A stretch of 41,429 nt of DNA from Planctomycetota bacterium (lineage in GTDB: Bacteria; Planctomycetota; UBA1135; UBA2386): NCBI GenBank assembly GCA_016794035.1, contig JAEUHS010000063.1, positions 1-41,429 of the forward strand, read 5' to 3'. Under the pieces are notes generated by a model. That model worked only from the letters and a program-made list of their open reading frames with translations, had not been told where the DNA came from and did not search any database. A program made the position numbers and the translations under genes. Numbering within the stretch: the stretch's first letter is position 1; every line of letters begins with the position of its first letter. Positions 28,068 through 39,119 of the stretch are shown piece by piece.

Positions 28068-28900
28068 GGGCGCAGCTTAGTCCGGTCGCCGTCCGCAGGC
28101 GAGCGCTCGCGGCCGTCCAGACCCAGCACGCGCACGAACCAGTCGCCGAGCCGCGGCGACAGCGTGTCGGCCCACAGCAACAGCCGGCAGTGCCAGGGCA
28201 CGATCACCTCGGCGCGGCGCCCGCGGATCGCCCGCAGCACGGCGCGGGCGACGCGGTCGGCCGGGATCTTGGCCGAGATGGCCGGCACCTCGAGGCCATC
28301 GCACATCGGCGTATCGACGCGGCCGGGGAACAGGGTGCAGACGTGCACGCCGCGGCCGCGCAGGGTCTGCCGCAGGGCGCCGGCGTAGCTGGCGAGCGCG
28401 GCCTTCGCCGCCGCGTAGGCGCCGTCGTGCGGCAGCGCCTTCCTGGCATCGAACGACGTCATCAGCACCAGGTGTCCCGCGCCGCGCGCGAGCAGGTGCG
28501 GCAATGCGGCCTGCACGACGTGGAACGCACCCCAGAAGTTGACCGCGAACGCGGACTCGAAGTCGGCGCGGGTGATGCGATCGGCGGGGCGGCGCAGGTA
28601 GCTGCCGGCGTTGGCGACCACGACGTCGAGCCGGCCCCAGCGCGCGAGCGTGTCCCGCACCGCGCCGTCGACGGCGGCCGCGTCGGTGACGTCGCAGGCG
28701 GCGACCGCGACCTCGGCGCCGCGGGCGCGCAGCTCGGCGGCGAGGTGTTCGAGCTGGTCGGTGCGCCGCGCGGCCAGGACCACGGCGCAGCCGTCGGCCG
28801 CGAGCGCCCGCGCGATCGCCGCGCCGATGCCGCTCGAGGCACCGGTCACCAGCGCGACGGCGCGCGGCGCAGCAGCAGGGGGATCGAGGTCGTTCGGCAC
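28064..28900 (-). CDS. Short-chain dehydrogenase/reductase
   Basis: A 278-residue classical SDR. Cofactor loop TGASSGIG (19-26), Arg45-Arg46 in AARR favouring NADP(H), structural NAG (97-99), and catalytic S149, Y162 and K166 (MTSF ... AYAAAK). A C-terminal hydrophobic stretch (about 235-260, with PWHCRLLLWADTLSP) may associate with membranes. The substrate is unknown. The start is GTG at 28900, 29 bp from the divergent kinase-like gene start at 28930. It is coupled to the downstream unknown gene. Confidence 0.88.
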   Translation of the reverse strand: MPNDLDPPAAAPRAVALVTGASSGIGAAIARALAADGCAVVLAARRTDQLEHLAAELRARGAEVAVAACDVTDAAAVDGAVRDTLARWGRLDVVVANAGSYLRRPADRITRADFESAFAVNFWGAFHVVQAALPHLLARGAGHLVLMTSFDARKALPHDGAYAAAKAALASYAGALRQTLRGRGVHVCTLFPGRVDTPMCDGLEVPAISAKIPADRVARAVLRAIRGRRAEVIVPWHCRLLLWADTLSPRLGDWFVRVLGLDGRERSPADGDRTKLRP

Positions 28901-28913
28901 GCGGCGGCCGCAG

Positions 28914-28919
28914 TATGCT
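28914..28919 (+). promoter_or_regulatory. -10-like hexamer upstream of the lipid kinase-like gene
   Basis: TATGCT ends ten nt before the ATG at 28930, which it favours over the ATG at 28915 that lies inside the box. Part of the near-leaderless pattern. Confidence 0.3.
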
Positions 28920-28929
28920 CGCGCCGCCG

Positions 28930-29865
28930 ATGGCGCGCGACTTCGTGCAGTCGAATGTGACCCCGCTGCTCGTGATCGCCAACCCGCGCGCCGGGCGCGG
29001 CCGCGGCGGGCCGCGCGCCGAGGAACTGACGCGCGCGCTGCGTGCCGCCGACCTGCCGTTCACCCTCGCGCACAGCAACGGCCCCGGCCACGCCACTGCG
29101 CTGGCCGCCGGCGCGCCGGGCGGCGTCGTCGCGGTCGGCGGCGACGGCAGCGTGCACGAGATCCTGAACGGCCTGCCCGCGCGCGGCGGGATGCTCGGGC
29201 CGCTCGCGGTGCTGCCGGCCGGCAGCGGCGACGACTTCGCCGGCGCGGCCGGCTTCCCGCGCTCTGCCGCCGCGCTGGTCGAACGGCTGCGCGCCGGCAC
29301 CGTGCGCGCGATCGACGTCGGCACCGCCGAGTTCGACTGCGAGCACGGGCGGATGCGGCGGCGCTTCGCCAACAACGCCGGGCTCGGCTTCGAGGCCGCC
29401 GTCGTCGCCGCCGCCGCGAACGCGCGCTGGCTGCGCGGCCGGCCGCTCTACCTGGCCGCGACGCTGCAGGCCGTGCGCCACCAGCGCCTCGTCGACTGCG
29501 AACTCGACTACACGATCGACGGCACCACGACGACGACCCGGCTGCCGCTCCTGTTCGTGTCGGCCTGCAACGGCAATCGCGTCGGCGGCGGGCTGCCGTT
29601 CGTGCCCGGCGCGCGGCTCGACGACGGCCAGCTCGACGTGCTGCAGGTCACCGCTGCGTCGCGCCGCGCGACGCTCGTCCTGCTGTGGCGGCTGCTGCGG
29701 GCCCGCCACGGCAGCGACGCGCGGGTTCGCCTCGCCCGCTGCACGCAGCTGGCGGTGCGACCGGCCACGCCGTTGCCGCTGGCCATGGACGGCGAGCTGG
29801 TGGCGCGGTCGGTGACGCGCGCGCGGCTCGGCATCGACGCCGCCAGGCTGTGGCTGTACGCGTGA
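28930..29865 (+). CDS. Diacylglycerol/lipid kinase family protein
   Basis: A 311-residue protein of the DAGK/sphingosine kinase-like (YegS-type) family, which phosphorylates lipid hydroxyls with ATP. The nucleotide-binding GGDGSVHEILNGL (70-82) and the substrate-side PAGSGDDFA (97-105, in place of the usual GTxND) are present, followed by the family's beta-rich C-terminal domain with MDGELV (about 289-294). The ATG at 28930 follows a TATGCT box. Lies between a divergent SDR and the large secreted-protein gene. Confidence 0.85.
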   Translation: MARDFVQSNVTPLLVIANPRAGRGRGGPRAEELTRALRAADLPFTLAHSNGPGHATALAAGAPGGVVAVGGDGSVHEILNGLPARGGMLGPLAVLPAGSGDDFAGAAGFPRSAAALVERLRAGTVRAIDVGTAEFDCEHGRMRRRFANNAGLGFEAAVVAAAANARWLRGRPLYLAATLQAVRHQRLVDCELDYTIDGTTTTTRLPLLFVSACNGNRVGGGLPFVPGARLDDGQLDVLQVTAASRRATLVLLWRLLRARHGSDARVRLARCTQLAVRPATPLPLAMDGELVARSVTRARLGIDAARLWLYA

Positions 29866-29913
29866 CCGGCGCACCGGGCTAGCATGCGAACTGCACCGCT
29901 CACCCCGAACCGC

Positions 29914-32900
29914 ATGCGAACCAGCACCCGACGCGTCCTGCTCCTGCTGGCCCTCGGCTCGCCGCTCGTCGGCCAGACGACGCCAGCGCTCGAGCTGCGG
30001 CCCGGCGACCACGTCGTGATGCTCGGCAACGCGCTGGCCGACCGCATGCAGCACAGCGGCTGGTTCGAGACGCTGCTGCACGCGCGCTACCCAGGGCACT
30101 CGCTGACGGTGCGCACGCTGGCCGTCGCCGGCGACGAGGTCGACACGTGGCATCGTTCGCAGGGATTCGGCACGCGCGACGACTGGCTGGCGAAGACCGG
30201 CGCCGACGTGGTGTTCGCGTTCTACGGCGGCAACGAGGCGTTCGCCGGCGCGGCGGGGCTGCCGCGATTCCGCGAGCGGCTGACGCGGTTCGTCGCCGAG
30301 GTGCGCGCCAGGACCTTCGGCGAGCACGGGCCCGTGCGCCTCGTGCTGTTCACGCCGATCGCCGGCGAACGGCACCAGGATCCGGCGTTGCCCGATCCGG
30401 CGCGGCACAACCTGGATCTGCAGCGTTACGCGGCGGCGATCGCCGACGTCGCGCGGCAGCAGGACGTCGCCTGCGTCGACCTGTTCGCCGCGAGCCGGCA
30501 GCTGTTCGCCGAGGCCGCGGCCCGCGGTCGTTCGCTGACGGTGAACGGCATGCACCTCACCGACGAGGGCGACCGCCTGTTGGCGCCGGAGCTGTTCCGC
30601 GGGCTGTTCGGCGAGCAGCCGCCCGCCGTCGCCGAGCGGCTGCTGCTGGCCGTGCGCGACAAGAACTGGTGCTGGCACCAGCGCTACCGCACGATCGACG
30701 GCTACAACGTCTACGGCGGGCGCTCGTACGAGAAGTACGCGCCGAAGGACCGTCACGGCGTGATCGGCGAGCCGATCCTGAACCGCACCGTGATGCAGCG
30801 CGAGATGGCGATGCGCGACGTGATGACGGCGAACCGCGACGCGCGCGTCTGGGCCGTCGCGCAGGGCGGCGACCTCGCGGTCACGGACGACGACCTGCCG
30901 GCGCCGATCCCGGTCGCGACCAACCATCCGGGCGATCGCGACGACCTGTCGTGGAGCTATCCCGACGGCGAGGCAGTGATCGACGAGCTGCAGGTCGCGC
31001 CGCACTGCAAGGTGAACCTGTTCGCCGACGAGGCGCGGTTCCCCGAGCTGGTGAACCCGGTGCAGATGGCGTGGGACGCTCGCGGCCGGCTGTGGGTCGC
31101 CGCCTGGCGCAACTACCCCGAACGGCAGCCCGGCAGCAAGGTCGGCGACTCGCTGCTGGTGCTCGAGGACACCGACCGCGACGGCCGGGCCGACACCTGC
31201 ACGACGTTCGCCGGCGACCTCAATGCGCCGACCGGGTTCACGTTCCACCGCGACGGCGTGCTGCTGATGCAGGCGCCGGACCTGTGGTTCCTGCGCGACA
31301 CCGACGGCAACGGCGTGGCGGACGCGCGCGAACGCGTGCTGATGGGCATCGACAGCGCCGACAGCCACCACACCACGAACGCGATGGGCCTCGACCCGAG
31401 CCTCGCGACGACGCTCAGCGACGGCTACTTCCACCGCACCCAGATCGAGACCTGGCACGGGCCGCTGCGCCACGCCGACGGCTGCATCTGGCGCTTCGAG
31501 CCGCGCACCGGCCGGGTGGAACTCTACGCGCCGTACGAGCTGGTCAACGCGCACGGCAAGGTCTGGGACGAGTGGGGCAACGACCTGCTGACCAACGCGA
31601 CCGGCAACCACACGTTCTTCGGCCCGGCGATCAGCGGCCACCTGACCCGCGGCAAGCACCCGGACATGAAGCAGTTCTGGGACCGGCCGTCGCGGCCGTG
31701 CCCGGGCACCGGCATGGTGTCGAGCGCGCACTTCCCGGCCGACTGGCAGGGCGACTTCCTGAACCTCAACGTGATCGGCCTGCAGGCGATCACGCGCGTG
31801 CGGGTGACGCAGGACGGCTCGGGCCTGAAGGGCGAGACGGTCGAGAACGTGGTCGCCGCCGATCCGAAGCTGCTGCCGACCTTCCGCCCGGTGTGCGTCG
31901 GCAACGGCCCCGACGGCGCGCTCTACTTCGCCGACTGGGCGCAGGCGATCATCGGCCACCTGCAGCACCATCTGCGCGACCCCAACCGCGACCACGCGCA
32001 CGGCCGGATCTACCGGATCACCTACGAGGGCCGACCGCTGGCCACGCCGCCGCGCATCGCCGGCGCGCCGATCGCGCACCTGCTCGACCTGCTCTGCGAT
32101 CCGGTGCAGGACACGCGCACGCTGGCGAAGCTCGAACTCGGCAGCCACGACCCGGCGCAGGTGACCGCCGCCCTGCACGGCTGGCTGGCCGCGCGCGATC
32201 CCGCCGAGCCGCGCCACGAACACCATCTGCTCGAGGCGCTGTGGCTGTGCCAGTCGTTCGACGTCGTCGACCTCGATCTGCTCGATCGGGTGCTGCGTTC
32301 GCCCGAGCCGCGCGCACGCGCGGCGGCGACCAAGGTGCTGTGCGACTGGCGCGAACGGGTGCCGGACGTGCTGCCGCGGCTGCTGCGACTGGCGGACGAC
32401 GCGGATCCACGCGTGCGGCTGCAGGCGGTGCGCGCCGCGAGCTTCTTCCACGGCGACGACGCGACCTACGCAGCGGACGTGGCGTTCGCGGCGTTGCGGC
32501 ATCCGCTCGACTACTACCTCGACTACGTCTTCGACGAGACGCTGCGGCAGCTGCGCACCGAGACCGACGCGGTGCTGCTGCCGAACGATCGGGACCTCGC
32601 CGCCGCGTATGCGCCGCGCATGCCGGACGCGGACCTGCGGCGCGCACCGGCCACGCTCGCCGTCACCCGCGAGCGCATCGACCGCAACAGCATCGAGCCG
32701 CCGTTGCGCAACCAGGCCGTCGAGCAGATGGCCCAGCTGCAGCAGACCGACGTCACGGACGTTCTCGTGCAGTCGCTGCGGCGTCTCGACGGCCGCGACG
32801 GCAACGCCGCCGTCGACGACCTCGCCCGGTCGCTCGGCTGGCTGTCCGCCAGCCTGCTGATGGTACACCGTGCGGCGCTGGAGACGATCGCCGACGGCGC

Positions 32901-33900
32901 CCACCGGCCCGCCGTTCGCCGCGCGGCACTGGTGGCGCTCGCGACGATCGCACAGGACGGCGCCGGGTTGTTCGCCGCCGCGGGCGACGCGCAGCGACGG
33001 CTGCAGACGATCGCCGCGATCCCGATGCTGCGCTCGGCGGAGCTGCGCGAGACGTTTGCGCCCGTGCTCGCCGCGATCCTCGGCGATGCGGCGGCCGACG
33101 GCGCGCTGCGCGAGGCGGCGCTCGCGGCGTTGCCGTTCGTGCCCGTGGACGAACCCGAGCGGCACTTCGCGGCGCTGGCCGCGGCGCTGCAGCGCGGCGA
33201 GGCGCGCACGACCGCCGCCCGCGCGATCCTGCAGCTGCCGCGCATGACCTGGGCGCCGACCGCCGCCGGCGCCGCCGCGACCAGCGTGCTGGCATGGGCC
33301 CGCGGCGTTTCCGCCGACGAACGCACGCAGCAGGACTTCCTCGAGGTCGTGCAGTGCGCCGAGGAGCTGGCCGGGCAACTGGCGCCCGCCGACGCCGCCC
33401 GGGTGCGGCGCGAGCTGCGCGGACTCGCGGTGCCGGTGTTCGTGCTGCACACCGTGCGCGAGCAGATGCGCTACGACCGGACCCGGCTCGTCGTCGAGCG
33501 GGGCAAGCCGTTCGAGATCGTGCTCGAGAACGACGACTTCATGGCGCACAACCTCGCCGTCGTCGAGCCCGGCACGCGCCCCGAGATCGGCATGGCGTCG
33601 GCCGTGATGTCGCCGAGCCAGCTCGACGCCGAGGGCCGCGCCTACCTGCCGGCGAGCCCGCACATCCTGGCCGCGACACGGCTCGTCGAGTCGGGGCGCA
33701 GCGCCCGGCTGAAGGTCGCGGCGATCGCGACCGAAGGCGACTACGAGTACGTCTGCACGGTGCCGGGCCACTTCCAGCTGATGTGGGGCACGCTGATCGT
33801 GACCAAGGACGTCGATGCATGGCTGCAGCAGCACGCCGACGACGCGCCGCCGGCAGATGCGGCGGCCGAAGTCCCCCACGAGCATCAGCACGGGCGGTAG
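29914..33900 (+). CDS. Secreted multidomain SGNH hydrolase / PVC-type propeller / HEAT / blue-copper protein
   Basis: A 1328-residue exported protein. A signal peptide (about 1-20, RRVLLLLALGSPLVGQ) is followed by an SGNH hydrolase-like domain (about 25-250) with a GNALADRM block I, a YGGNEAF block III and a NGMHLTDEG block V; the catalytic Ser of block I appears replaced by Asn or Ala, so activity is uncertain. Next comes a PVC-type membrane-bound dehydrogenase propeller domain (about 350-710: FADEARFPELVNPVQMAWDARGRLWVAAW, TDRDGRAD, GNGPDGALYFADW), HEAT-like helical repeats (about 720-1180) and a C-terminal cupredoxin. Type-1 copper ligands fit azurin spacing: H1212, then C1281, H1286 and M1290. 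No CxxCH heme motif is present, unlike many relatives, so electrons probably leave through copper. The ATG at 29914 was chosen over 29884, which lies in a -10-like TAGCAT. Confidence 0.88.
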   Translation: MRTSTRRVLLLLALGSPLVGQTTPALELRPGDHVVMLGNALADRMQHSGWFETLLHARYPGHSLTVRTLAVAGDEVDTWHRSQGFGTRDDWLAKTGADVVFAFYGGNEAFAGAAGLPRFRERLTRFVAEVRARTFGEHGPVRLVLFTPIAGERHQDPALPDPARHNLDLQRYAAAIADVARQQDVACVDLFAASRQLFAEAAARGRSLTVNGMHLTDEGDRLLAPELFRGLFGEQPPAVAERLLLAVRDKNWCWHQRYRTIDGYNVYGGRSYEKYAPKDRHGVIGEPILNRTVMQREMAMRDVMTANRDARVWAVAQGGDLAVTDDDLPAPIPVATNHPGDRDDLSWSYPDGEAVIDELQVAPHCKVNLFADEARFPELVNPVQMAWDARGRLWVAAWRNYPERQPGSKVGDSLLVLEDTDRDGRADTCTTFAGDLNAPTGFTFHRDGVLLMQAPDLWFLRDTDGNGVADARERVLMGIDSADSHHTTNAMGLDPSLATTLSDGYFHRTQIETWHGPLRHADGCIWRFEPRTGRVELYAPYELVNAHGKVWDEWGNDLLTNATGNHTFFGPAISGHLTRGKHPDMKQFWDRPSRPCPGTGMVSSAHFPADWQGDFLNLNVIGLQAITRVRVTQDGSGLKGETVENVVAADPKLLPTFRPVCVGNGPDGALYFADWAQAIIGHLQHHLRDPNRDHAHGRIYRITYEGRPLATPPRIAGAPIAHLLDLLCDPVQDTRTLAKLELGSHDPAQVTAALHGWLAARDPAEPRHEHHLLEALWLCQSFDVVDLDLLDRVLRSPEPRARAAATKVLCDWRERVPDVLPRLLRLADDADPRVRLQAVRAASFFHGDDATYAADVAFAALRHPLDYYLDYVFDETLRQLRTETDAVLLPNDRDLAAAYAPRMPDADLRRAPATLAVTRERIDRNSIEPPLRNQAVEQMAQLQQTDVTDVLVQSLRRLDGRDGNAAVDDLARSLGWLSASLLMVHRAALETIADGAHRPAVRRAALVALATIAQDGAGLFAAAGDAQRRLQTIAAIPMLRSAELRETFAPVLAAILGDAAADGALREAALAALPFVPVDEPERHFAALAAALQRGEARTTAARAILQLPRMTWAPTAAGAAATSVLAWARGVSADERTQQDFLEVVQCAEELAGQLAPADAARVRRELRGLAVPVFVLHTVREQMRYDRTRLVVERGKPFEIVLENDDFMAHNLAVVEPGTRPEIGMASAVMSPSQLDAEGRAYLPASPHILAATRLVESGRSARLKVAAIATEGDYEYVCTVPGHFQLMWGTLIVTKDVDAWLQQHADDAPPADAAAEVPHEHQHGR

Positions 33901-33914
33901 CGCCCGCCGCGCGC

Positions 33915-34979
33915 TCACTTCGCCGCGGGTGCCGCGGTCGGTCGCCAGGCGAGGTCCGCCGGCCGCACGCCCTTCTGGTGCGTGCCGAAGCCGAACGGCG
34001 TCGGCGCGAACGCACCGGCCAGCGACACGTCGAGATCCGGCGTGATCGCCGCCTCGCGGCCGAGCGCCCACAGGCACGCGTTGACCAGCAGCCGCCGCGT
34101 GCCCGCCTGCAGGAACGCCTGCGAGCTGCCGAGCGTGGTCGCGAACACGCGCGCGGCCCTGCCGTTCGGCGCGCGATAGGTGTTGGTCCAGGCCACCGGC
34201 ATGCGCGGCGCGTTGAGGTCCTGCACGGCGCCGGTGCTGGCGTCGGTGGTCGCCGGTGCTGGCTCGCTGTCGGGCGTCATGCCGGCCAGCACCTCGCCGA
34301 GCAGCACGGGTTCGCAGCCGGCGGGCAACGGCAGCCCCACCGCGTAGACGTCGGCCGGGTCCCACACCGCGCCCGGCGCGATCCCGCGCAGGATCACGTG
34401 GTCCTCGGCGCCCGGCGCGACGACGCCGCGCGTGCTCTGACTGCCGTGCGCGCCGTGGTGCGCGATCCAGGTCTCGCCGAGCACCTGCCGGCCGAAGCCG
34501 CCGTCCCATTGCTTGCCGTTCCACGACCAGTCCGCGTACTTCGTGTGCTTCGCGGCCGCGAACGCATGCGTCGCCGTGCGCAGCGCGACGATCGGCCGCC
34601 CCGACTGCACGTAGTCGACGATGTGCCGCATCTGCGCGTCGGGCAGGTCGCGGAAGCGCGTGAACAGCACCATCAGGTCGGCGTCGTCGAGCGCCTCGAG
34701 GCCGGGGATGTTGTCGCGTACGCCCGGATCGATCGCCCCCGTCGCCGGGTCGATCGCGAACAGCACGGTGCAGTGGCAGCCCAGGCGCGCCAGGATCCGG
34801 GCGAGCTGCGGCATGCCCTGTTCGGAGCGGTATTCCTCGTCGCCGGTCACGAACACCACGCGCGCGCCCGCGCCGACGCCGGCGCCGCCCTCGTAGACGA
34901 CCCATGGGTCTGCGGCGACCGGCTGCTGGCCGACCGCGCAGGCGAACAACGACAGGGTGACGGCGGCAGCTTGCAGCAT
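33915..34979 (-). CDS. Secreted ThuA-domain protein
   Basis: A 354-residue protein with a signal peptide (about 1-19, MLQAAAVTLSLFACAVGQQ). A glutamine-amidotransferase-like ThuA fold covers most of it: VVFVTGDEEYRSEQ, DADLMVLFTRFRDLPDAQM, GRPIVALRTATHAF, then HGAHGSQSTRG and PVAWTNTYRAPNGRAARVFATTLG near the C-terminus. ThuA proteins are linked to sugar metabolism and are expanded in Planctomycetota, but their activity is unclear; the Cys nucleophile of amidotransferases is absent. The ATG at 34979 has AGGA eight nt upstream. It is divergent from the TIM-barrel/Tm-1-like operon by 37 bp and convergent with the blue-copper protein. Confidence 0.85.
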   Translation of the reverse strand: MLQAAAVTLSLFACAVGQQPVAADPWVVYEGGAGVGAGARVVFVTGDEEYRSEQGMPQLARILARLGCHCTVLFAIDPATGAIDPGVRDNIPGLEALDDADLMVLFTRFRDLPDAQMRHIVDYVQSGRPIVALRTATHAFAAAKHTKYADWSWNGKQWDGGFGRQVLGETWIAHHGAHGSQSTRGVVAPGAEDHVILRGIAPGAVWDPADVYAVGLPLPAGCEPVLLGEVLAGMTPDSEPAPATTDASTGAVQDLNAPRMPVAWTNTYRAPNGRAARVFATTLGSSQAFLQAGTRRLLVNACLWALGREAAITPDLDVSLAGAFAPTPFGFGTHQKGVRPADLAWRPTAAPAAK

Positions 34980-35016
34980 CGTGATTTCCTGGGCGCCAGC
35001 GGGGATCATCGCGCCG

Positions 35017-35886
35017 GTGATCGTCCCCCGCACGTCGCGTCCGCAGATCCTCGCCAAACTGCATCGCAAGGTCGCGCAGCGGCTGCCGGTGTTCATCGCC
35101 TCGGCCGGCAACGGCCTCACGGCGCAGCTGCTCGAGCGCGCCGGCGTCGACTGCGTCAACACGTTCTCCGGCGCCCGGCTGCGCGCCAACGGCATGGGCA
35201 CGATGGCGATGCTGTGGCCGATCCTCGACTCCAACCAGCAGACGCTCGACTACACGCGCGAGGACATCCTGCCGGCGATGCGAGGCGACGCGTTCGTCTG
35301 CGCGTGCCTGAACGCCAACGACCCGCTGAAGGACATGCGCATGGTGCTCGACCAGCTGCTGGCGATGGGCGTCTGCTCGGTGTCGAACATCGGCCCGTCG
35401 ATCTCCTACGTCGACAAGGACAGCGAGGTCTACCGCGTGCTGACCAAGGCCGGCATCACGTTCCAGCACGAGATCGAGATGCTGAAGCTCGCCAAGGCGA
35501 TGGGTCTGGTGACGATCGGCCTCGCGTTCGACGAGGCGGACAGCCTGCAGCTGGTCGAACAGGCGCGGCCCGACGTGTTCTGCTTCCACGCCGGCACCAC
35601 GAAGGGCGGCCTGCGCGGCTACGACTCCGGCGAGACCATCGACGCGACCGCCGCGCGCACCGAGGCCGTGAACCGCAAGCTGCGCCAGATCGACAAGGAC
35701 CTGATCCTGATCGCCCACGGCGCCGCGATGGAGACGCCCGAGGACGCGCAGTTCGTGCTCGACCACACCACCGTCGACGGCTTCTGGACCGGGTCGTCGA
35801 CGGAACGCATCCCGATCGAACAGGCCGTGCTGGGCACGGCGCAGCGCTTCGCGAGTCTCCGCTTCACCACGCCCCGGAAGGCATGA
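35017..35886 (+). CDS. PEP-hydrolase-like TIM-barrel protein
   Basis: A 289-residue TIM barrel of the phosphoenolpyruvate mutase/hydrolase superfamily, of the type that forms the C-terminal half of the plant Tm-1 protein. It shows LPVFIASAGNGLTAQLLERAGVDCVNTFSGARL near the start, ACLNANDPLKDM, VSNIGPSISYVD, HEIEMLKLAKAMGLVTIG and FCFHAGTTKGGLRGYDSG. A small-molecule phosphate or acid as substrate is likely, but function is not established. The GTG at 35017 was chosen (PRTSRPQILAKLHRK follows); an upstream start would add a Pro/Ala-rich tail. Its stop overlaps the next gene's ATG. Confidence 0.85.
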   Translation: MIVPRTSRPQILAKLHRKVAQRLPVFIASAGNGLTAQLLERAGVDCVNTFSGARLRANGMGTMAMLWPILDSNQQTLDYTREDILPAMRGDAFVCACLNANDPLKDMRMVLDQLLAMGVCSVSNIGPSISYVDKDSEVYRVLTKAGITFQHEIEMLKLAKAMGLVTIGLAFDEADSLQLVEQARPDVFCFHAGTTKGGLRGYDSGETIDATAARTEAVNRKLRQIDKDLILIAHGAAMETPEDAQFVLDHTTVDGFWTGSSTERIPIEQAVLGTAQRFASLRFTTPRKA

Positions 35887-37115
35887 CCATGGACACGACC
35901 GTCGCCGTGCTCGCCACGCTGGACACCAAGGGCCACGAGGCCGAGTACCTGCGCGAGCAGCTCGGCCGGCTCGGCAGCGCGGCGCTGGTGGTCGACGTCG
36001 GCGTGCTCGGCGCGCCGCAGTGCCGCGCCGACGTGCCGCGCAACCGGGTCGCCGCGGCCGGCGGCACGACGCTGACGGCGCTGGTCGAGCAGGGCACGCG
36101 CGAGGCGGCGACGCCGGTCATGGCGGCGGGCGCGGCGAAGCTGCTCGCCGACCGCATCGCCGCCGGCACCGTGCACGCCGTGATCGGGCTCGGCGGCCTG
36201 CAGGGCACCGCGCTGTGTTCGCAGGTGCTGCGCACCCTGCCGTACGGGTTCCCCAAGGTCATGGTGTCGACCGTCGCGTCCGGCGACGTGTCGGCCTACG
36301 TCGACGTCAAGGACATCACGATGATGTTCTCGGTCGCCGACCTGCTGGGCGTCAACACGTTCACGCGGCGGCTGCTGGCGAACGCCGCCGGCGCCGCGCA
36401 CGGCATGGCGCAGGTCGACGTGCCGATCGTCACCAGGGGCGGCGACAAGCCGCTGATCGGCATGTCGAACCTCGGCGTGCTGACCAGCGGCGCGCAGCTC
36501 GCGCTCGAGCTGTTCGCCGCGCGCGGCTACGAGGTGCTGGTGTTCCACGCCGTCGGCTCCGGCGGGCGCGCGATGGAGCAGATGATGCGCCAGGGCATCG
36601 TCGGCGCGGTGTTCGACTACGCGATGGGCGAGATCACCGACGAGCTGTTCGCCGGCCTGCGCGCCGGCGGCAAGGAGCGCCTCACGGTCGCCGGCAGCCT
36701 CGGCCTGCCGCAGGTGCTGTGCCCGGGCGGCGTCGAACACGTCGGCGTGCTGGTGGCGCCGAACACCGTGCCGGCGCGCTGGCAGGACCACCAGCACGTG
36801 TTCCACAGCCCGGTCGTGCTGGCGCCGCGCCTGAATGCCGACGAGCTGCGGCAGGTCGCGCGCGAGATCGGCCGCCGGCTGCAGAGCACCAGGGGCAACG
36901 CGGTGCTGATGCTGCCGAAGGACGGCACCGGTCGCTACGCGATGCCCGGCGGCCCGCTGCGCGACCCGGCGGGCGACGCGGCGTTCTTCGCCGAACTGAA
37001 GGCCGCGGTGCCGCCGTCGATCCCGGTCGTCGAGCGCGACCTGCACGCCGAGGACCCCGCGTTCGTGCGCGAGTGCGTCGACCGGCTGCTGGCGCTGGTC
37101 GAACGGCGCGCGTGA
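35883..37115 (+). CDS. Tm-1-like (UPF0261) ATP-binding domain protein
   Basis: A 410-residue protein of the UPF0261 family, the N-terminal domain of the plant Tm-1 resistance protein, which binds ATP. It starts TVAVLATLDTKGHEAEYLREQLG, then IGLGGLQGTALCSQVLRTLPYGFPKVMVSTVASGD (about 98-132), VKDITMMFSVADLLGVN and VFHAVGSGGRAMEQMMRQG, all typical of the family. Two consecutive overlaps (ATGA at its start and GTGA at its end) bind it into one translational unit with the TIM-barrel and hydrolase genes. In plants and fungi the two domains are fused in one polypeptide, so here they probably form a complex. Biochemical role unknown. Confidence 0.9.
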   Translation: MTMDTTVAVLATLDTKGHEAEYLREQLGRLGSAALVVDVGVLGAPQCRADVPRNRVAAAGGTTLTALVEQGTREAATPVMAAGAAKLLADRIAAGTVHAVIGLGGLQGTALCSQVLRTLPYGFPKVMVSTVASGDVSAYVDVKDITMMFSVADLLGVNTFTRRLLANAAGAAHGMAQVDVPIVTRGGDKPLIGMSNLGVLTSGAQLALELFAARGYEVLVFHAVGSGGRAMEQMMRQGIVGAVFDYAMGEITDELFAGLRAGGKERLTVAGSLGLPQVLCPGGVEHVGVLVAPNTVPARWQDHQHVFHSPVVLAPRLNADELRQVAREIGRRLQSTRGNAVLMLPKDGTGRYAMPGGPLRDPAGDAAFFAELKAAVPPSIPVVERDLHAEDPAFVRECVDRLLALVERRA

Positions 37116-37843
37116 TCGGGCCGCTGCACAACCGGCACGGCGAACGGCTCGACCACGTGGTCACGCCCGGCCGCGCCGGCGCGCGCGAGATCGTCGTCGT
37201 CGCGCACGGCGTCACCTCGCAGCACGACCGCCCGTACCTGGTGGCGCTGTGCGAGGCGCTCGCTGCAGCCGGCGTCGCGTCGCTGCGGTTCTCGTTCGCC
37301 GGCAACGGCCGGTCCGAGGGCGCCTTCGCCGAGGCGACGATCGGCAAGGAGGTCGCCGACCTCGGCTGCGTGCTCGACGCCTGCGGCGACCGCCGTATCG
37401 GCTGCGTCGGCCACAGCATGGGCGCCGCGGTCGGCGTGCTGCGCGCGGCGGCCGACCCCCGCATCGCAGCGCTGGTCTCGCTGGCCGGCATGGTGCACGT
37501 GCGCGCGTTCTGCGAACGGCACTTCGCCGGGCTCGTGCCGGGCCGCGACCAGATGTTCGATCGCCCGGGCTGCGGGCTGTCGCAGGCGTTCCTCGACGAC
37601 GCGCGCGCGGTCGACACGGTGCTGCCCGCCGCGCAGCGGATCACCGTGCCCTGGCTGCTGGTGCACGGCGACCGCGACGAACTGGTGCCGCGCGCCGATG
37701 CCGAGGCCGCGCGCCGCGCTGCGGGCGGACGCCCGGAGTTGCGGGTGCTCGCCGGCGCCGACCACCGCTTCACCGGCTGCATCGAGCCGATGGTCGCGGC
37801 GGTCGTGCCGTGGCTGCTCGCGGCGCTGCGCGCGCCGGCCTGA
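37112..37843 (+). CDS. Alpha/beta hydrolase
   Basis: A 243-residue serine hydrolase of the alpha/beta fold. Oxyanion-region HGVTSQHDRPYL (32-43), nucleophile elbow GHSMG (100-104, Ser102), acid in VHGDRDELV and the catalytic His in ADHRFTG near the C-terminus. It lacks a lid domain of note and a signal peptide. GTG at 37112 overlaps the Tm-1-like stop (GTGA). The likely role is hydrolysis of an ester or thioester in the same pathway as the two upstream proteins. Confidence 0.87.
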   Translation: MIGPLHNRHGERLDHVVTPGRAGAREIVVVAHGVTSQHDRPYLVALCEALAAAGVASLRFSFAGNGRSEGAFAEATIGKEVADLGCVLDACGDRRIGCVGHSMGAAVGVLRAAADPRIAALVSLAGMVHVRAFCERHFAGLVPGRDQMFDRPGCGLSQAFLDDARAVDTVLPAAQRITVPWLLVHGDRDELVPRADAEAARRAAGGRPELRVLAGADHRFTGCIEPMVAAVVPWLLAALRAPA

Positions 37844-38147: not shown

Positions 38148-39119
38148 ATGGACCCGAGGATCGAACGCGCTCGCGAGATCGTCGAACGCGAAGCTGCGGC
38201 CGTGCGGCAGGTTGCGGACCGGATCGGCACGGACTTCCTGCGCACCCTGGACCGGATCCTGGGCCTGCGCGGCCGCGTCGTCACGGCCGGCATGGGCAAG
38301 GCCGGCTTCATCGCGCAGAAGGTGTCGGCGACGCTGGCGTCGACCGGCACGCCGTCGATCTTCCTGCATCCGGCCGAGGCGATCCACGGCGACCTCGGGC
38401 GCGTCGACCAGGGCGACCTGCTGCTGGCGTTCTCGAAGTCCGGCGAGACGCAGGAACTGCTGGTGATGCTGCCGCACGTCAAGGCCGTCGGCGTGCCGCT
38501 GGTCGCGGTCACGCAGACCGTCGACTCGACGCTCGGCCGCCACAGCGACCTGGTGCTCGAACTGGGTCGCATCGACGAGTGCGGGCCGTACGGGCTGGCG
38601 CCGAGCGCGTCGACGACGGCGATGCTGGCGCTCGGCGATGCGCTGGCGCTGGTGGTGCAGGAGGGCCGCAAGTTCGGCCCCGACGAGTTCGCGCGCTTCC
38701 ATCCCGGCGGCGACCTCGGCCGCCGCCTGATGAAGGTCGCCGAACTGATGCGCACCGGCGAACGCAACCCGCAGGTGCAGAGCGGCTCGACCGTGCTGCA
38801 GGCGGTCGAGGTGATGACCCGCACGCCGGGCCGTCCGGGCGCCACCAGCGTCGTCGACCCGAACGGCCGGCTGCTCGGCTTCTTCACCGACGGCGACCTG
38901 CGGCGCCTGATCGAGCACGGCCTCGCCAACCCGCGCGAGCGCCGCATCGACGAGGCGATGACGCCGAGCCCCCGTTCGATCCGACCCGACACGTTCGCGC
39001 TCGAGGCGCTGGCGCTGCTGCACCAGTTCGCGGTCGACCAGCTGCCGGTCGTCGACGACGACGGGCGACTGCTCGGCCTGCTCGACGTGCAGGATCTGCT
39101 GAACCTCAAGATCGCATGA
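38148..39119 (+). CDS. Arabinose-5-phosphate isomerase (KpsF/GutQ/KdsD family)
   Basis: A 323-residue enzyme making arabinose-5-phosphate, the precursor of Kdo. A SIS domain (about 40-175) holds TAGMGKAGFIAQKVSATL and FSKSGETQELL (95-105); two CBS domains follow (about 205-323, ending VVDDDGRLLGLLDVQDLLNLKIA). The architecture is that of the whole family, and the adjacent kdsC supports the Kdo role. The ATG at 38148 (MDPRIERAREIVERE) follows a TACTCT box; an earlier in-frame ATG would add 32 residues. Stop overlaps kdsC (ATGA). Confidence 0.92.
   Translation: MDPRIERAREIVEREAAAVRQVADRIGTDFLRTLDRILGLRGRVVTAGMGKAGFIAQKVSATLASTGTPSIFLHPAEAIHGDLGRVDQGDLLLAFSKSGETQELLVMLPHVKAVGVPLVAVTQTVDSTLGRHSDLVLELGRIDECGPYGLAPSASTTAMLALGDALALVVQEGRKFGPDEFARFHPGGDLGRRLMKVAELMRTGERNPQVQSGSTVLQAVEVMTRTPGRPGATSVVDPNGRLLGFFTDGDLRRLIEHGLANPRERRIDEAMTPSPRSIRPDTFALEALALLHQFAVDQLPVVDDDGRLLGLLDVQDLLNLKIA

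What the first reader, a model, noticed from the sequence alone, without database searches (positions are those of the whole stretch)
35017..37843. Split Tm-1 operon with an alpha/beta hydrolase next to ThuA and a blue-copper protein
A PEP-hydrolase-like TIM barrel and a UPF0261 protein, fused as Tm-1 in plants and fungi, are separate but translationally locked genes here, followed by a serine hydrolase with the same overlap. No bacterial pathway is assigned to this pair, to my knowledge. The hydrolase plus an ATP-binding protein and a TIM barrel suggest a small catabolic or detoxification module; the divergent ThuA protein 37 bp away and the adjacent secreted propeller/copper protein may supply its extracellular steps. 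Functional linkage is inference.
Basis: partly seen in the sequence, partly recalled or inferred. Interest (0 to 1): 0.75.

Follow-up and report, generated by a model that had tools for sequence, protein, structure and literature searches.

The report
Mobile cassette around bacterial Tm-1 pair
A five-gene block, present here, at another place in one sister genome and absent from a third, joins genes for a predicted secreted dehydrogenase-like protein and a ThuA protein to the two separate bacterial counterparts of the plant virus-resistance protein Tm-1, and likely lets the cell oxidise, phosphorylate and split a still unknown, probably sugar-like compound.

Summary
The genes are real and placed as described: PF09370 TIM barrel, UPF0261 protein and alpha/beta hydrolase with 4-base overlaps, and ThuA 37 bp away on the other strand. 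The guessed link to ThuA and the PVC-type/blue-copper protein holds up. All five genes (29884-37843) form one block: in sister genome G001 the flanking genes are adjacent and the block is absent; in G002 the whole block lies on another contig. Among 92 loci (window included, nine phyla by record titles), ThuA lies within 9 kb in 39, a PVC-type dehydrogenase in 30, a class II aldolase/SDR fusion in 35, and a TIM barrel in 88. The hydrolase of the window's type is rare (4 of 92), though other alpha/beta hydrolases recur (14). The claim that no bacterial function is known is outdated for one half: a UPF0261 protein (PDB 9MPY, acetovanillone-bound) comes from a bacterium whose acetovanillone pathway starts with a single-component kinase, MarK. 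The TIM barrel is closest, after its own family, to tryptophan synthase alpha and IGPS. I read it as an oxidise, phosphorylate, cleave pathway for an unknown substrate. A natural TIM-UPF0261 fusion exists, but no confident interface was predicted.

The parts
29884..33900 (+). predicted secreted PVC-type protein: GDSL-like N-terminal domain, DUF7133/TIGR02604 propeller, HEAT repeats, azurin-like cupredoxin tail
   Evidence: PF23500, PF13472, PF13646, TIGR02604 and azurin matches; GDS motif reads GNA, no CxxCH; part of the moved block
33915..34979 (-). ThuA-domain protein with a signal-peptide-like N-terminus (read by eye)
   Evidence: PF06283 35.3 bits, cut-off 33.4; relatives form one ORF with a PVC-type protein in Verrucomicrobiota
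35017..35886 (+). PF09370 TIM barrel (PEP-hydrolase-like, TBST), GTG start
   Evidence: PF09370 199.5 bits; 30 residues invariant in 86 sequences; TrpA/IGPS-like fold of a close homologue
35883..37115 (+). UPF0261 (Tm-1-like) protein, predicted kinase
37112..37843 (+). alpha/beta hydrolase (S33-like), overlaps the UPF0261 stop by GTGA
   Evidence: PF12146 69.7 bits; inside the moved block, whose match ends at 37824
28915..29865 (+). left flank, not part of the module: YegS-like lipid kinase
   Evidence: PF00781, PF19279; next to KdsD in G001
38148..39119 (+). right flank, not part of the module: KpsF/KdsD arabinose-5-phosphate isomerase
   Evidence: TIGR00393 270.5 bits; conserved site without the block in G001, G002, G003

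Best explanation
The five genes 29884-37843 are one transferable block that likely encodes a catabolic route in which a predicted secreted dehydrogenase with ThuA would oxidise a hydroxylated compound outside the cytoplasm, the UPF0261 protein would phosphorylate it with ATP inside, and the TIM barrel would cleave or rearrange the phosphorylated product. SHOWN: block structure, empty site, recurring neighbours, domain assignments, fold matches. INFERRED: that the proteins act in sequence; that UPF0261 here is a kinase (from a structure and a pathway report on another member); that the TIM barrel is a TrpA/IGPS-like acid-base lyase acting on the phosphate ester; that ThuA works with the dehydrogenase; that the hydrolase opens an ester, lactone or 1,3-dicarbonyl product; that the substrate is sugar-like (from class II aldolase/SDR, FGGY kinase, xylose-isomerase-like and ABC transporter neighbours in other genomes, several of them named by reading the sequences).
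Against: 27 of 92 loci have none of ThuA, PVC or aldolase/SDR within 9 kb, though 46 of 92 lack 6 kb on at least one side. ThuA/PVC and aldolase/SDR are mostly alternatives: 30 loci have only the former, 26 only the latter, 9 both. In L122, L125, L129 and L134 the TIM partner is a distant type (36-37% identity) although UPF0261 is 53-55%. No biochemistry for this UPF0261 subfamily; 9MPY is 30% identical. MarK = Saro_1862 is my inference; the MarK paper was not held. Lys196 of the TIM barrel is K in 61 of 86 sequences, so a Schiff-base aldolase is unlikely. The fused model gave pTM 0.50. UPF0261 without a TIM neighbour occurs, e.g. Ruegeria pomeroyi and Gemmobacter fulvus.
Confidence: 0.5

Rival explanations
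1. Only the TIM barrel and UPF0261 protein work together; ThuA, PVC-type protein and hydrolase are separate functions that happen to travel in the same mobile block.
For: 27 of 92 loci have none of ThuA, PVC or aldolase/SDR nearby; Rhizobium, Haloterrigena, Thermomicrobium and Rubrobacter pairs have other neighbours.
Against: The same partners recur in several phyla and gene orders, and PVC-type genes track the pair genome by genome (24 of 25 against 6 of 76).
Confidence: 0.2
2. The block degrades an aromatic hydroxyketone in the manner of MarK: phosphorylation of a phenol, then cleavage by the hydrolase.
For: 9MPY holds acetovanillone; MarK starts hydroxyphenylethanone catabolism.
Against: None of the five genes matches a biotin carboxylase or a phosphatase family, and other members of the subfamily sit beside class II aldolase/SDR and sugar-type genes.
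Confidence: 0.15
3. The TIM barrel is not an enzyme but a partner that sets the specificity of the kinase in a complex, as the fused Tm-1 suggests.
For: Fusion in plants and in P0122; the two families co-evolve (PMC5028733).
Against: Acid-base residues E40, D45, R56, D102, E152, H191, H234, E263, R264 are invariant in 86 sequences; G082 and G090 keep the TIM gene far from the UPF0261 gene; the fused model gave no confident arrangement.
Confidence: 0.12

Closest known systems
MarK / Saro_1862 (PDB 9MPY), Novosphingobium aromaticivorans (that the two are one protein is inferred)
   Different: MarK is described as single-component and acts in acetovanillone catabolism; here UPF0261 is paired with a TIM barrel and a predicted secreted dehydrogenase
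Tomato Tm-1 (PDB 3WRW, 3WRX, 3WRY) and plant Tm-1L
   Different: two genes here, TIM first; plant proteins are fused with UPF0261 first
Mll9387 (PDB 2P10), putative phosphonopyruvate hydrolase
   Different: no activity is given in any call; the name is only 'putative'
Tryptophan synthase alpha chain and IGPS
   Different: 10-15% identity; no sequence match at E up to 10
Hpe/Acv acetovanillone pathways
   Same: phosphorylate-first logic (PMC9618137 abstract and passages)
   Different: HpeHI is a two-component kinase that its authors relate to phenylphosphate synthase; carboxylase and phosphatase follow, none in this block

Membership tests
UPF0261 / Tm-1-like | both Pfam domains over their cut-offs | tested here: met
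   192.8 and 189.1 bits, cut-off 27
UPF0261 / Tm-1-like | solved family fold | tested here: met
MarK-type kinase | ATP-dependent phosphorylation of a hydroxyphenylethanone | not testable with these tools
   needs an enzyme assay
Hpe/MarK-type pathway | carboxylase and phosphatase next to the kinase | tested here: not met
   none of the five block genes matches either; the rest of the genome was not tested; clustering is said to be uncommon in any case (52 of 836 cases, passage in PMC13101465)
Tm-1L fused protein | UPF0261 and TIM barrel in one chain | tested here: not met
   separate overlapping genes
PF09370 PEP_hydrolase | Pfam score over cut-off | tested here: met
   199.5 bits, cut-off 33.8
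TIM-UPF0261 complex | confident interface | tested here: inconclusive
   fused homologue P0122, pTM 0.50 with 20 sequences
TrpA/IGPS superfamily | fold similarity | tested here: met
TrpA/IGPS superfamily | sequence membership | tested here: inconclusive
   no TrpA or IGPS chain at E up to 1 with the sequence or 10 with the profile
ThuA | PF06283 over cut-off | tested here: met
   35.3 bits against 33.4, marginal
PVC-type haem-binding CxxCH protein | TIGR02604 over cut-off | tested here: met
   180.7 bits against 122.2
PVC-type haem-binding CxxCH protein | CxxCH haem motif | tested here: not met
   no CxxCH in the window protein; cupredoxin tail instead
GDSL/SGNH hydrolase (N-terminal domain) | GDS catalytic serine | tested here: not met
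   window motif reads GNA; among the 12 of 31 long ORFs in which the pattern was found, 10 read GNA, 1 GNT and 1 (L127) GNS, which keeps the serine

The most novel reading that the evidence does not exclude
An undescribed oxidise-phosphorylate-cleave catabolic pathway spread over at least six phyla, in which a secreted ThuA-dehydrogenase unit makes a keto compound, a UPF0261 kinase phosphorylates it and a PF09370 barrel splits it by TrpA-like acid-base chemistry; this two-enzyme step is the ancestral function from which plant Tm-1 was fused.
Probability: 0.35. Interest if true: 0.82.

Novelty: new variant of a known kind. Interest (0 to 1): 0.62.

Why it matters
The original job of Tm-1, a plant virus-resistance protein, and of its widespread bacterial relatives is open as far as my searches show. 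A defined five-gene block with an empty-site relative, a kinase precedent for one half and a fold precedent for the other turns that question into a small set of enzyme assays and gene knock-outs. It also gives a genomic context to ThuA and PVC-type dehydrogenases, families that recur in the related genomes and whose substrates no call here identified.

Tried and rejected
Interface by structure: the natural fusion P0122 with 19 paired rows gave pTM 0.50, so no interface can be claimed or excluded. A first alignment mixing single-domain rows (A3) aligned the wrong halves and was not used.

Schiff-base aldolase for the TIM barrel: dropped, because Lys196 is not conserved (K in 61 of 86).

Fusion evidence for the hydrolase and for a 3-keto-disaccharide hydrolase (P0123, P0125): not used; on reading, P0123 looks frame-shifted before its hydrolase part and P0125 looks chimeric. 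P0124 (cupin-UPF0261) reads cleanly but is 40% identical, the other subfamily. P0126-P0130 are UPF0261-ABC ATPase proteins of distant type (32-36%) and were not followed. P0122 itself rests on one 2.9-kb metagenome contig.

HpeHI/AcvAB as the same enzyme: rejected after reading passages of PMC9618137: 71.2 and 40.6 kDa subunits, described as homologous to phenylphosphate synthase. Cutibacterium paper PMC12733950 (passages): its ThuA and Tm-1-like genes lie over 1 Mb apart; coincidence. The passages I saw of PMC11837543 (also abstract) and PMC12607616 held nothing on UPF0261.

Print status: searches for UPF0261 (5 papers), Tm-1-like ATP-binding (0), phosphoenolpyruvate hydrolase family or Tm-1 (3,424 papers, 30 seen), ThuA with trehalose utilization and 3-keto (2), TIM-barrel signal transduction and related terms (14), acetovanillone terms (2 and 12), Saro_1862 (0), MarK terms (1), ThuA/PVC/Tm-1 terms two at a time (1, irrelevant). 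None of the titles and abstract starts seen describes this gene cluster; subscription journals are mostly not held.

Full report
Observation. The four genes of the finding are present at the stated coordinates with the stated overlaps. The TIM gene starts at GTG 35017 and ends at 35886; UPF0261 is 35883-37115; the hydrolase is 37112-37843; ThuA is 33915-34979 on the minus strand. Upstream lies the PVC-type protein 29884-33900, convergent with ThuA and 14 bases away. Very long ORFs that span several genes in other frames (2306 and 2322 codons) I take as products of the high G+C content. By Pfam the window's ThuA is marginal (35.3 bits, cut-off 33.4), and a family search of the own genome reported only another ThuA gene on contig C69.

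One block. In the sister genome G001 (same genus, 92% complete) the gene left of the block (YegS-like lipid kinase) and the gene right of it (KdsD) are about 60 bp apart as protein matches, and the aligned DNA ends are 83 bp apart. G001 has no match to UPF0261, to ThuA or to the PVC-type protein at E 1e-60 (where 6 of its 9 candidates were scored). In sister genome G002 the flanks are together on contig C12, about 1.4 kb apart, while the block is on contig C25: window 29989-37824 aligns there as one piece of 7923 columns at 80.8% identity, with nothing else of the window matching that 19.5-kb stretch. G003 also has the flanks, about 1.4 kb apart, without the block. So the five genes 29884-37843 are gained, lost or moved together in this genus. 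This is the strongest evidence that the hydrolase, too, belongs to the unit here.

Neighbourhoods. UPF0261 relatives were found in 41 of 101 related genomes, own included, in two subfamilies: one at 50% identity or more (24 full places plus a fragment in G056) and one near 40% (30 places, two of them fragments). Within 9 kb of UPF0261 there is a TIM barrel in 88 of 92, ThuA in 39, a PVC-type protein in 30, a class II aldolase/SDR fusion in 35, alpha/beta hydrolases of other types in 14 and of the window's type in 4; the window itself is counted where it applies. Of the four without a TIM barrel, L100 and L112 are cut by a contig end, and L089 and L097 (genomes G090 and G082) carry the TIM gene elsewhere. 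Only 46 of the 92 hold at least 6 kb on both sides; there the counts are 44, 20, 16, 20, 9 and 1. The loci come from Planctomycetota, Bacteroidota, Verrucomicrobiota, Acidobacteria, Gemmatimonadota, Chloroflexi, Calditrichota, Poribacteria and Pseudomonadota, as I grouped the record titles; 6 carry no phylum name, and many are metagenome bins. ThuA or PVC neighbours were seen in six of these phyla: Planctomycetota, Bacteroidota, Verrucomicrobiota, Acidobacteria, Gemmatimonadota and Chloroflexi (the last one locus, ThuA only). By combination: none of ThuA, PVC and aldolase/SDR 27; aldolase/SDR only 26; ThuA and PVC 24; ThuA only 6; all three 6; ThuA and aldolase/SDR 3.

Gene order. ThuA-PVC-TIM-UPF0261 run on one strand in L083 (Gemmatimonadota) and L086 (Acidobacteria); TIM-UPF0261-ThuA-PVC in L135 and L138 (Verrucomicrobiota). 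In L119, L132, L135 and L138 ThuA and the PVC-type protein are one ORF of 1377-1386 codons. In Bacteroidota such as L101, hydrolase, aldolase/SDR, TIM and UPF0261 follow each other on one strand.

Chance. Among 101 genomes, 24 of the 25 with the window's UPF0261 subfamily have the PVC-type protein at E up to 1e-60, against 6 of the other 76 (nominal Fisher p 1.3e-16; the genomes are related, so this is not a true probability, and only 6 candidates or fewer were scored per genome). ThuA lies within 11 kb in 10 of 24 genomes (G056 dropped because its UPF0261 is a fragment at a contig end), 0.19 expected from copy numbers; with one genome per genus, 5 of 16, 0.12 expected. As a comparison I looked at 15 of the 30 places of the 40% subfamily: none has ThuA in the stretch fetched, but 11 have a PVC-type protein of a different subgroup (25-35% identity) nearby, 0.74 expected. 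The dehydrogenase link may therefore hold for the pair more widely in planctomycetes, while ThuA marks the window's subfamily.

Pairing. P0122 (708 aa, one 2.9-kb contig) is a fusion with the TIM barrel first, the reverse of plant Tm-1. In G082 and G090 the TIM gene of the window's subfamily is not next to its UPF0261 gene but beside a TIM gene of the other subfamily, so both are kept even when apart. All 9 genomes that I searched for it, each with UPF0261, hold a TIM barrel. In four loci the TIM partner is of a distant type (36-37%), so partners can change. The fused model gave pTM 0.50, so a physical complex is neither supported nor excluded. Outside this subfamily, pairs sit beside sugar or amino-acid transporters, cupins and aromatic-type genes, and UPF0261 can stand without a TIM gene nearby. 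The substrate therefore probably differs between subfamilies.

Secreted part. The GDSL-like domain of the window protein has GNA in place of GDS, so it is probably not an esterase; of the 12 long ORFs (31 examined, not all of them PVC-type) in which the pattern was found, 10 read GNA, 1 GNT and 1 GNS, and the search pattern favoured such forms. The tail keeps the order of copper ligands; 18 of the other 30 ORFs carry a CxxCH haem motif. Both fit an electron-passing dehydrogenase, which is inference; no activity of this family was found in any call.

Verdict. I commit to an oxidise, phosphorylate, cleave route; the substrate is unknown, sugar-like by context.

Noticed in passing
L144, L145, L147, L148, L151, L152, L155, L156, L157, L161, L142: UPF0261 loci of the other subfamily in related genomes also sit near PVC-type dehydrogenases (11 of 15, 0.74 expected), without ThuA.
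   Followed up: partly
window 29884-33900, first 250 residues: GDSL-like domain with the catalytic GDS changed to GNA, shared by most relatives in which the pattern was found.
   Followed up: partly
L142 7589-9477, L143 7917-10074: TIM barrels of both subfamilies lie beside each other on opposite strands, away from the UPF0261 gene of the window's subfamily.
   Followed up: partly
L162 4284-9230: In Ruegeria pomeroyi a UPF0261 gene without TIM neighbour follows genes annotated as aldehyde dehydrogenase, class III aminotransferase and homoserine kinase, perhaps an amino-alcohol pathway.
   Followed up: no
L133 7370-21224: In Labrenzia alba the pair lies in a cluster with AraC regulator, alpha/beta hydrolase, aldolase/SDR, FGGY-like kinase, HAD-like protein, a second class II aldolase and an ABC transporter (several labels from reading the sequences).
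   Followed up: no
P0124; L163, L164: Cupin-UPF0261 fusion; cupin genes also sit beside or between the pair in Rhizobium and Haloterrigena.
   Followed up: no
window 28846-35766 minus and 30147-37115 plus: Two ORFs of over 2300 codons overlap several genes in other frames; taken as a high-G+C artefact.
   Followed up: no
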